Part shown: one piece after another, positions 49,288 through 51,856 of the stretch
Layout: the number at the start of each line of letters is the position of its first letter
How positions within the stretch are numbered: position 1 is the first letter of the stretch
Source: Candidatus Nitrosopumilus sp.
GTDB taxonomy: Archaea; Thermoproteota; Nitrososphaeria; Nitrososphaerales; Nitrosopumilaceae
DNA: 64,000 nt
NCBI GenBank assembly: GCA_029255365.1
Contig: JAPFQF010000040.1
Span: forward strand, 1-64,000
Direction: 5' to 3'
The notes under the pieces: generated by a model
The model's input: the letters and a program-made list of their open reading frames with translations, nothing else
Database searches by the model: none
Told to the model about the DNA's origin: nothing
Made by a program: the position numbers and the translations under genes

Positions 49288-49569
49288 TTAACGTCGACGT
49301 TTAGCTGCCTTTCTCTTTGGAGCGGCCTTGCGTTTAGCTGCGACCTTTCTCTTTGGAGCTGCCTTTCTTTTTGCTGCTGCTTTTCGTTTAGGGGCTGCAT
49401 TTCTCTTAGGTGCTGCTGATGCTGCGTTTTTCCTCCGAGTTGCTGCTGCCTTTCTTTTACGAGATGCTGCTGCTTTCAGTGCTGTTGCTTCTGCCAATGC
49501 TGCATTCCTCTTTCGAGTTCTTGCTGCTTTTTTAGATGCTTCAGATCTTTTTGCTTTGGACGTTGCCAT
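49288..49569 (-). CDS. Histone-H1-like Lys/Ala/Arg-rich protein
   Basis: 93 residues made almost wholly of Ala, Lys and Arg. The second half repeats RKAAAKRKAAPK-type units of 6-9 residues. This matches H1-like C-terminal tails of chromosome-compacting proteins; it probably binds DNA or RNA without a folded domain. The codons are GC-rich compared with neighbours. ATG start. Confidence 0.72.
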   Translation of the reverse strand: MATSKAKRSEASKKAARTRKRNAALAEATALKAAASRKRKAAATRRKNAASAAPKRNAAPKRKAAAKRKAAPKRKVAAKRKAAPKRKAAKRRR

Positions 49570-49660: not shown

Positions 49661-50146
49661 TCAGCAATTTGTAAGACAAACGACAGCTGTATCTACAGTT
49701 GACTGATCTTTTTGCGGACGAATAATTATTTTGTATTGTTTTTCTTCATCGTATGGGATGTCGAACTGTGTGGTTCTCTGAATAGGTTTGTTTGGTTCCA
49801 GAGCTTCCAGATACAAATCAATGGCGGAAAATTCACCAAACACAGCTTCATGTTTTTGGTCTCTGTCATCTACAATGTAAAACTGCCCCCCTGAAATGAT
49901 TGTTTTTTCGTCACTGGTGTTTTTTGCAGTAATTCCAATCATCACAAACGTGTTTTCTGGCACCTTTTCTTTGTTTCCGTTATGTGTGCCTTCAAAAGTT
50001 ATCATATATTCAACTGGCCCCACATTTACTGCATTTCCCACACTTGATTCAATGTAGTTTGTTTCATATTCCATGTATGTGATCAGTGCAAATCCCATTG
50101 AAGCTACGATTGCACCTATTACAATTACAATGCCAAGTCCTGCCAT
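49661..50146 (-). CDS. Membrane-anchored DUF4352-like extracellular protein
   Basis: 161 residues. One N-terminal helix (IVIVIGAIVASMGFALITYM) then a beta-sandwich: NVGPVEYMITFEGT, FVMIGITAKNTSDEKTIISGG, FDIPYDEEKQYKIIIRPQ. A terminal Cys pair (VVCLTNC). TATA-like AACTATATACC is 26 nt before ATG 50146. Resembles the sandwich of the 31467 protein. Confidence 0.68.
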   Translation of the reverse strand: MAGLGIVIVIGAIVASMGFALITYMEYETNYIESSVGNAVNVGPVEYMITFEGTHNGNKEKVPENTFVMIGITAKNTSDEKTIISGGQFYIVDDRDQKHEAVFGEFSAIDLYLEALEPNKPIQRTTQFDIPYDEEKQYKIIIRPQKDQSTVDTAVVCLTNC

Positions 50147-50174: not shown

Positions 50175-50662
50175 TTGAAACTGCCATTTTTTGTGTCTAA
50201 TTTGTCCTCAAAACCCCCATGCATCACAGACGTTACAGATTCTACCCGAGGTGGAATCAGAGTCGATAAAAATGGTGTAATGAGAGTTTTCCAACATCTG
50301 AACTTGATGGAGGATCTATTTCTGGTCTGGCATCTGGATTCAATATGTTCCAGGTGTTTTAGACTGCAGGTAAACATCCATTACAACTTCAAGTACAATT
50401 CGTACCGTTGAGACATTTTTCTCGTTTTTTCTTTATTTTTTATCAAAATTTAGTGGGTTGAGCTTTTACGCACAACTACAAAAGATCATGCCCCTTTAGC
50501 TGGGAGAGCTTGGTGGAATTACGGTTGCATGTTGCATCTAGGCACAAGTGTCCCACCCCCCCAACAAATACCTCATTTTGAAAATTTCACAACATGACTA
50601 AACCCTGTATTTTTCAGGGGGGGTTTAGCGCCTAGGCTTATTTTTACAGAATTGCTCATTTT
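50175..50662. other. Gene-poor stretch with hairpin and G/C tracts
   Basis: No convincing gene; frames on both strands near 50160-50410 lack protein character. A stretch from 50490 (GCTGGGAGAGC) recalls a tRNA D-arm but has no T-arm. A C7 run ends near 50562 and a hairpin lies at 50599-50629. Confidence 0.4.
50599..50629. terminator. Hairpin CTAAACCCTG / CAGGGGGGGTTTAG
   Basis: The arms at 50599-50608 and 50616-50629 pair with a G bulge around a T-rich loop. It could be a terminator or part of an RNA. Position relative to transcripts is unclear. Confidence 0.4.
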
Positions 50663-50881
50663 ATGACATTGTCTGAAATTGACGTAATCCAATCAAAAAT
50701 TTGTAAAAATAGGCCGGATGTTAACATTCTAAATTCATCAAAGATGTTGTTTGTGGATGCAAACGTTTCATTGATTGCAGATTCGTCAATTTGTAAAGCG
50801 TACTCTTTCATCCCTTATTTTGGACCCGTTCTGATTTTATTCTGTGTATGCACTATTGGACACACATTTTATGTCAAATAA
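50663..50881 (+). CDS. Small protein with hydrophobic C-terminus
   Basis: 72 residues, ATG start, 21 nt after CTTATTTTTA. The first half is soluble; the last 25 residues form a membrane helix (FIPYFGPVLILFCVCTIGHTF). It stops at a G7 run and converges on the micro-ORF operon. No family; moderate doubt. Confidence 0.4.
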   Translation: MTLSEIDVIQSKICKNRPDVNILNSSKMLFVDANVSLIADSSICKAYSFIPYFGPVLILFCVCTIGHTFYVK

Positions 50882-50950: not shown

Positions 50951-51034
50951 TTATTGTTTCAGTTCCTTCTGAACTGTCTTTACAATAAAGTGCACTGCTA
51001 TGGCCAGTCCTATGATTTTGAAGAGATTATTCAT
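50951..51034 (-). CDS. Micro-ORF 4: 27-residue membrane peptide
   Basis: ATG 51034 overlaps the stop of micro-ORF 3 by 8 nt. Encodes MNNLFKIIGLAIAVHFIV and a basic tail KTVQKELKQ: a single amphipathic or membrane helix. Last of four coupled micro-ORFs. Confidence 0.55.
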   Translation of the reverse strand: MNNLFKIIGLAIAVHFIVKTVQKELKQ

Positions 51035-51098
51035 GTGGCTGTACCTCGTTGTTGTCATATGTGTCCAGAATCTCCTCTATCATCTTGATTATGTTCAA
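51027..51098 (-). CDS. Micro-ORF 3: 23-residue acidic peptide
   Basis: TTG 51098 overlaps the stop of micro-ORF 2 by 4 nt (TTGA). Product NIIKMIEEILDTYDNNEVQ, acidic helix. Weakest of the four. Confidence 0.45.
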   Translation of the reverse strand: MNIIKMIEEILDTYDNNEVQPHE

Positions 51099-51217
51099 TT
51101 CTGAATCACCTCAAACTGCGTGCTTTTATTTTCCAGTCTTAGTTTGTTAACTGTGATGTTAACGCTGATTTCAAAGTTCCTTGTCTTGTGTCTGAATAGG
51201 ACGTTGAAGATGTTCAT
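51095..51217 (-). CDS. Micro-ORF 2: 40-residue beta-rich peptide
   Basis: ATG 51217 overlaps the stop of micro-ORF 1 by 4 nt (ATGA). Product starts MNIFNVLFRHKTRNFEIS and is basic, beta-rich (VNITVNKLRLENK). Confidence 0.55.
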   Translation of the reverse strand: MNIFNVLFRHKTRNFEISVNITVNKLRLENKSTQFEVIQN

Positions 51218-51345
51218 TTCAAAAACACCACCAAAGTTGCGATTGTTGTCAAGACAAAGACCTTGTTTTTCGATGCCTTGAGTTTGAGGATTTGGCTTTC
51301 TATAAAATTGCCTTTCTGTGCAAATTTTAAAAATCTGATTTTCAT
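51214..51345 (-). CDS. Micro-ORF 1: 43-residue peptide with C-terminal membrane helix
   Basis: ATG 51345 is 26 nt after TATA-like CCTTATATCA, a textbook leaderless start. Basic head (KIRFLKFAQKGNF), then a hydrophobic end (VFVLTTIATLVVFLK). Heads a chain of four overlapping micro-ORFs. Confidence 0.6.
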   Translation of the reverse strand: MKIRFLKFAQKGNFIESQILKLKASKNKVFVLTTIATLVVFLK

Positions 51346-51406
51346 ACTATGCAATGGCCAGTTTTTGATATAAGGTCCGCGTAGAACTGATAAATCGTCT
51401 ATTTTT

Positions 51407-51856
51407 TTAAAACGTTTTCAGCAAAAATCTGGATGTTTTGTCATATTTCTCGGACACGCTGTCTATCGCATCAAGCATTGTCTGCTGGTTTATGTTTTCT
51501 TTGTCATCCATAACCACATAGACGCCGACTTTTTGTTTCCCGTCCTCTGTGATCATTTTGTTGATTACCTGTATGGAGTTGCAAAAATCGTTCACTTTGT
51601 TCTCAAACCTCTCTTTTTCTTCTGCACTAAATCCCAAATATCTTGCAATCTGGCTGTTCTTCATTTCCACTTTGGCACCAATTACTAGAATTCCCGGCTG
51701 TCTTTTTGGTTCAAACACGTCAACTGGAATTCCGTACCGTCCTGCGTGTTTTACTAGAATTTGAAAAATATTTTCAGGATTCTTTACTTGTTCTGACTTG
51801 AGCCCTTCGTGAATTATCCATCTCTCGACATTGTCTCTCATCCTGGACACGCTCAT
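51407..51856 (-). CDS. DUF2299-like archaeal protein
   Basis: 149 residues: RDNVERWIIHEGL, then a beta segment PGILVIGAKVEMKNSQIARYLGFS and a helical end with INQQTMLDAIDSVSEKYDK. Size and layout agree with archaeal DUF2299, whose function is unknown. Starts at 51856, 51850 or 51841 are possible. A 26-bp palindrome lies 66 nt upstream. Confidence 0.55.
   Translation of the reverse strand: MSVSRMRDNVERWIIHEGLKSEQVKNPENIFQILVKHAGRYGIPVDVFEPKRQPGILVIGAKVEMKNSQIARYLGFSAEEKERFENKVNDFCNSIQVINKMITEDGKQKVGVYVVMDDKENINQQTMLDAIDSVSEKYDKTSRFLLKTF

What the first reader, a model, noticed from the sequence alone, without database searches (positions are those of the whole stretch)
50951..51345. Operon of four overlapping micro-ORFs (43, 40, 23 and 27 codons)
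All four overlap by 4, 4 and 8 nt in the ATGA/TTGA manner of translational coupling, behind a perfect leaderless promoter. The first and last encode membrane helices. They are too short for normal annotation, yet random chance of such a chain is small. They could form a small membrane complex or a toxin-like set.
Basis: seen in the sequence. Interest (0 to 1): 0.6.

Follow-up and report, generated by a model that had tools for sequence, protein, structure and literature searches.

The report
Four overlapping microprotein genes in Nitrosopumilus
A marine ammonia-oxidising archaeon carries a row of four tiny overlapping genes that comparison with about twenty related genomes shows to be real protein-coding genes unlike any known family, while other relatives carry a single unrelated small gene behind the same promoter instead.

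Summary
The chain alone is not unusual (about 2.5 per simulated 64-kb strand); conservation is what makes it real. Homologues lie downstream of a DUF2299 gene in 23 of 95 same-genus genomes (Nitrosopumilus). In 21, all four frames are intact, every internal start is kept, and dN/dS is 0.35, 0.14, 0.22 and 0.09 (shifted same-strand frames 0.65-1.9). Two copies are decayed. ORF1 starts 28 nt after a TATA box (leaderless); ORFs 2-4 have Shine-Dalgarno matches to the 16S tail. No relative was found in Pfam, NCBIfam, PADLOC, PDB or outside the genus. New here: the slot is two-state. About as many genomes carry one unrelated 50-codon basic protein gene behind the same promoter motif; the two never share a slot and have been exchanged. 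Best reading: an accessory operon of four coupled microproteins, probably a small membrane-associated complex made at fixed stoichiometry. Coding, coupling signals and exchange are shown by sequence; membrane location, complex and function are inferred. The toxin reading has no positive support.

The parts
51377..51395 (-). conserved upstream motif ATTTATCAGTTCTACGCGG, just upstream of the TATA box; candidate regulator site
   Evidence: near-identical in both cassette classes, decayed or absent in slots with neither; the only close match in the own genome
51368..51373 (-). TATA box TTATAT, 28 nt before ORF1's ATG
   Evidence: spacing 28 nt in 18 of 21 carriers
51214..51345 (-). ORF1, 43 aa, leaderless, basic N-terminus and C-terminal hydrophobic stretch
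   Evidence: intact in 21 genomes, dN/dS 0.35; hydropathy
51226..51232 (-). Shine-Dalgarno-like GGTGGTG before ORF2
   Evidence: pairing with 16S 3' end GGATCACCTCC, mean -8.1 kcal/mol over 21 genomes against background about -3.5
51095..51217 (-). ORF2, 40 aa
   Evidence: dN/dS 0.135; ORF1 ends AAATGA in 21/21, which keeps the ATG
51105..51112 (-). Shine-Dalgarno GAGGTGAT before ORF3
   Evidence: mean pairing -12.9 kcal/mol over 21 genomes
51027..51098 (-). ORF3, 23 aa, TTG start, acidic
   Evidence: dN/dS 0.22; AATTGA junction in 20/21, ATTTGA in the other
51043..51047 (-). Shine-Dalgarno GAGGT before ORF4
   Evidence: mean pairing -8.8 kcal/mol
50951..51034 (-). ORF4, 27 aa, hydrophobic helix plus charged tail
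   Evidence: most constrained of the four, dN/dS 0.09; start codon kept while the ORF3 residue at the junction varies
51407..51856 (-). upstream neighbour, DUF2299 gene that marks the slot
   Evidence: Pfam PF10061 E 5.8e-21; adjacent in the carriers examined
50656..50811 (-). downstream neighbour, separate 51-aa ORF (ORF5), not part of the overlapping set
   Evidence: conserved, dN/dS 0.23; occurs behind both cassette types

Best explanation
This is a real accessory operon of four microprotein genes carried by a subset of Nitrosopumilus. A promoter with a conserved upstream motif makes a leaderless mRNA whose first codon is ORF1's ATG. Ribosomes that finish ORF1, ORF2 and ORF3 restart at the overlapping, Shine-Dalgarno-assisted starts of ORF2, ORF3 and ORF4, so the four products are made in linked amounts. 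The most likely reason for the linkage is fixed stoichiometry of a small hetero-complex in which ORF1 and ORF4 sit at the membrane and hold the acidic ORF3 and the amphipathic ORF2. The unit is dispensable and shares its slot with an alternative single-gene cassette under the same promoter. Shown by sequence: coding, purifying selection, start conservation, SD and promoter placement, slot exchange and decay. Inferred: reinitiation itself, membrane location, complex formation and any physiological role.
For: All four frames intact in 21 of 23 carriers; dN/dS 0.35, 0.135, 0.22, 0.09 against 0.65-1.9 in shifted same-strand frames. Junctions AAATGA 21/21, AATTGA 20/21; at ORF3/ORF4 the encoded residue varies (CAT, AAT, GAT, TGT, or CCA/CCT followed by TGA) but a start codon is kept 21/21. 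The 16S tail carries the anti-SD, and SDs precede ORF2-4. TATA at 28 nt. Hydrophobic stretches in ORF1 and ORF4, opposite charge of ORF1 (+8) and ORF3 (-5). Overlaps from -8 to +10 nt are enriched for subunits of heteromeric complexes (PMC10666635: 45.2% against 5.6% in H. volcanii).
Against: No transcript, peptide or interaction data. Hydrophobic stretches are short, and AlphaFold confidence is modest. Over half of closely spaced gene pairs in H. volcanii do not encode known complexes. SD strength exceeds synonymous recoding only moderately (8-20% of recodings as good). ORF1 is only moderately constrained.
Confidence: 0.55

Rival explanations
1. Four genuine, coupled microproteins that do not form one complex: independent small regulators, for example of different membrane proteins, co-expressed for convenience.
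For: Same sequence evidence for coding and coupling; many known small proteins act singly on larger partners (general knowledge).
Against: The four are always found together with identical order and overlaps; no genome in the sets searched shows one clearly without the others.
Confidence: 0.22
2. An antagonistic multi-peptide system (bacteriocin-like, or a toxin with immunity partners) exchanged among strains at a hotspot.
For: Patchy distribution, exchange of the cassette at one slot, short hydrophobic peptides.
Against: No match to toxin, antitoxin or defence families; no transporter or processing gene beside it; products conserved rather than diversifying; no leader peptide or double-glycine motif seen in the sequences.
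Confidence: 0.12
3. One polypeptide made by serial programmed frameshifts across the overlaps.
For: Frames follow each other with short overlaps.
Against: Start codons are kept at every junction although a frameshift would not need them, and residues change while the start remains; no constant slippery heptamer, since the base before AAATGA varies (listing); SDs sit at initiation distance.
Confidence: 0.03
4. Chance ORFs over a structured or antisense RNA, or a decayed larger gene.
For: Chains of four ORFs occur about 2.5 times per simulated strand.
Against: Codon-phased conservation in 21 genomes with off-frames unconstrained on the same strand; no Rfam match over the ORFs; no larger relative found.
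Confidence: 0.02

Closest known systems
Overlapping gene pairs translated by termination-reinitiation in archaea and bacteria (Huber et al. 2019, PMC6728339; 2023, PMC10666635)
   Same: Co-directional genes with -4 nt ATGA-type and short overlaps, SD upstream of the restart
   Different: Four consecutive genes all under 50 codons, one restart on TTG; reinitiation not measured here
Clusters of single-helix small subunits such as cyanobacterial psbEFLJ (from general knowledge, not compared here)
   Same: Several genes of about 40 codons in a row, hydrophobic products, presumed membrane complex
   Different: No sequence relation tested or claimed; psb genes are core subunits of a known complex, these are accessory and of unknown partner
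Additional small subunits of archaeal ammonia monooxygenase (AmoX, AmoY, AmoZ; PMC10030591, seen as a search result only)
   Same: Small membrane-associated proteins in ammonia-oxidising archaea
   Different: Not compared by sequence; present set is in about a quarter of Nitrosopumilus genomes, which argues against a core enzyme subunit

Membership tests
Operon translated by termination-reinitiation | Short overlaps of stop and start codons | tested here: met
   4, 4 and 8 nt (4 nt at the third junction in three genomes), kept in 21 carriers
Operon translated by termination-reinitiation | Start codon at the overlap under selection | tested here: met
   start kept 21/21 at each junction, also where the upstream residue changes
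Operon translated by termination-reinitiation | Downstream translation depends on upstream translation | not testable with these tools
   needs a two-reporter experiment
Leaderless archaeal transcript | TATA box about 26-28 nt before the start codon and no SD before the first gene | tested here: met
   28 nt in 18 of 21, 29-30 in 3; no SD-like stretch seen before ORF1
Leaderless archaeal transcript | Mapped 5' end at the start codon | not testable with these tools
   no transcript data
Toxin-antitoxin or bacteriocin system | Homology to a known toxin, antitoxin, immunity or defence protein | tested here: not met
   no hit in Pfam, NCBIfam or PADLOC
Toxin-antitoxin or bacteriocin system | Toxicity and neutralisation | not testable with these tools
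   needs expression tests
Programmed-frameshift gene | Conserved slippery site and no need for internal starts | tested here: not met
   starts kept at all junctions; base before AAATGA varies
Small membrane complex | Hydrophobic helices in subunits | tested here: inconclusive
   ORF1 and ORF4 have 14-15-residue hydrophobic stretches; AlphaFold helical with modest confidence for ORF1 and ORF2; ORF4 too short for the tool

The most novel reading that the evidence does not exclude
A two-state locus: one conserved operator-promoter drives either a four-microprotein membrane assembly or an unrelated single basic microprotein, never both in one slot, and marine ammonia oxidisers exchange the two. 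The cassettes would be alternative solutions to one task, or mutually incompatible, and the four-part set a new kind of assembly built only from translationally coupled subunits under 50 residues.
Probability: 0.25. Interest if true: 0.7.

Novelty: new variant of a known kind. Interest (0 to 1): 0.52.

Why it matters
Four protein families of 23-50 residues matched nothing in the libraries searched, yet are under clear purifying selection in abundant marine archaea; genes of 23 and 27 codons are easily missed in annotation. The locus offers a compact test of serial termination-reinitiation (three couplings in under 400 nt, one on a TTG start), and the mutually exclusive cassette pair behind one promoter gives a genetic handle on what the microproteins do.

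Tried and rejected
(1) Rarity of the ORF chain as evidence: rejected, simulations give about 2.5 per strand. (2) Known RNA gene: no Rfam match over the ORFs. (3) Known protein family, solved structure or defence system: none. (4) Viral origin: no relative in IMG/VR. (5) Relatives outside the genus: none convincing in 400 order-level genomes with ORF4 (one E 0.025 hit with a stop) or 400 class-level genomes with an ORF2 profile (a few hits at E 0.002-0.006). (6) Homology of ORF1 with the alternative 50-aa protein: hhalign finds none, but the profiles are thin. (7) AlphaFold on ORF1 and ORF2: helical with too little confidence for a fold search, so none was run. (8) The first multiple alignment mixed orientations for minus-strand loci; it is not used, and the work was redone from correctly turned loci. 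(10) Paper searches on small ORFs in N. maritimus and on DUF2299 returned nothing.

Full report
What is there. The four ORFs are on the minus strand, 51345 down to 50951, downstream of a DUF2299 gene (51407-51856); further on come a small ORF (50656-50811) and a DUF4352 gene (49661-50146), all on the same strand. The window lies in a 1.2-Mb, 86%-complete genome; named records that hold the same locus are mostly titled Nitrosopumilus, others Nitrosopumilales, Thaumarchaeota or simply archaeon.

Chance. The chain itself proves nothing. With the same rules (at least 20 codons, ATG/GTG/TTG, overlap 1-8 nt), first-order Markov sequence modelled on the window gives 2.45 chains of four or more per 64-kb strand, and one lies on the opposite strand over part of the same bases.

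Conservation. A DNA search showed conservation running through the ORF region in some same-genus genomes and stopping soon after DUF2299 in others. A protein search with ORF2 found 23 of 95 genus genomes. In 21 of them all four frames are open and arranged the same way. Nei-Gojobori dN/dS pooled over pairs is 0.35, 0.135, 0.22 and 0.09 for ORF1-4; the two shifted frames on the same strand give 0.65-1.9. One reverse-strand frame is also lowish (0.17-0.32 in ORFs 2-4), but always higher than the true frame; it is the reverse frame whose silent positions best coincide with those of the true frame. G009 (indel in ORF2, stop in ORF3) and G092 (stops in ORF1 and ORF4, ORF2 start lost) are decayed copies, so the unit is dispensable.

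Coupling signals. ORF1 ends AAATGA in 21/21, and ORF2 ends AATTGA in 20/21 (ATTTGA in G098, where ORF2 stops two codons early); each contains the next start. At the ORF3-ORF4 junction the encoded residue varies (CAT, AAT, GAT or TGT before the GAA/GAG-TAA end; CCA or CCT before a TGA end), yet a start codon is always kept. This points to selection on the start rather than on the peptide. The 16S of this genome carries GGATCACCTCCTT at its 3' end; the stretches before ORF2, ORF3 and ORF4 pair with the anti-SD at mean -8.1, -12.9 and -8.8 kcal/mol against a background near -3.5. Synonymous recoding does as well in 8%, 14% and 20% of draws on average, so the SD signal beyond protein constraint is suggestive, strongest for ORF2. 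ORF1 has a TATA box 28 nt before its ATG. Published work ties overlaps of this size to termination-reinitiation and to subunits of hetero-complexes (PMC6728339, PMC10666635).

The slot. I fetched the DUF2299-downstream region across the genus and scored it. Of 70 slots on the tree, 22 hold the four-ORF cassette (A), 21 a single ORF of about 50 codons for a very basic protein (B; dN/dS 0.136), the rest neither; none holds both (Fisher p = 6e-5, not corrected for descent). G074 has A and B on different contigs beside two DUF2299 copies, which may be a mixed bin. A and B start at the same place behind the same conserved motif and TATA box; slots with neither have lost or degraded it, with visible remnants in G094, G109 and G065. 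On the DUF2299 tree A needs five label changes and B twelve; short-gene trees are poorly resolved in parts. The A-operon tree places G084 and G110 with G007 and G009 (100/100), whereas the DUF2299 tree places them with B carriers (100/98): the cassette has moved independently of its neighbour. B also occurs in four other genera of the family; A was found in none, so A looks like the newer occupant (inference).

Products. ORF1: basic, variable N-terminus, near-invariant C-terminal half ending in a hydrophobic stretch bounded by lysines. ORF2: 40 aa, invariant His10, Glu16, Glu36. ORF3: acidic. ORF4: hydrophobic helix, then a charged tail. AlphaFold gives helices with modest confidence for ORF1 and ORF2. 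None has a match in the libraries searched.

Mechanism. A leaderless mRNA, initiation at ORF1, then three SD-assisted restarts giving linked output of four microproteins, two of them hydrophobic: a small membrane-associated assembly is the most economical reading (0.55 for the whole statement; I put the claim that the four are genes above 0.95). Independent small regulators (0.22) and an antagonistic peptide system (0.12) remain open; the toxin idea has only patchiness and exchange in its favour.

Limits. No expression data for this locus were available. Pooled pairwise dN/dS is not corrected for descent. Absence calls depend on draft genomes, some well under 70% complete.

Noticed in passing
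window 50440-50645 (-): A single-copy element of about 190-200 nt, conserved nearly without gaps in 65 slots of the genus between the cassette slot and the DUF4352 gene, with facing C-rich and G-rich runs; consensus fold -12.6 against -1.2 for column shuffles but no covariation, and no Rfam match above threshold. Possibly an undescribed RNA or regulatory element.
   Followed up: partly
window 50656-50811 (-): ORF5, a 51-aa conserved small ORF (dN/dS 0.23) found downstream of both A and B cassettes in 33 of 95 genus genomes; no Pfam or NCBIfam match.
   Followed up: partly
L101, L128, L163 and other B-type loci: The alternative cassette B: one 48-50-codon ORF for a very basic protein (charge +11), dN/dS 0.136, often followed by a hairpin-like GC repeat and T-run; present in five genera of the family.
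   Followed up: partly
window 49288-49569 (-): A 93-aa Lys/Ala/Arg-rich repetitive ORF of histone-H1-like composition beside the DUF4352 gene.
   Followed up: no
L010 (G007), downstream of ORF4: A different short ORF (MDLGALFNSDALMEAATGVANQMMTATTGLVDKLMSSVMLG) downstream of the cassette, not noticed in the other carriers viewed.
   Followed up: no
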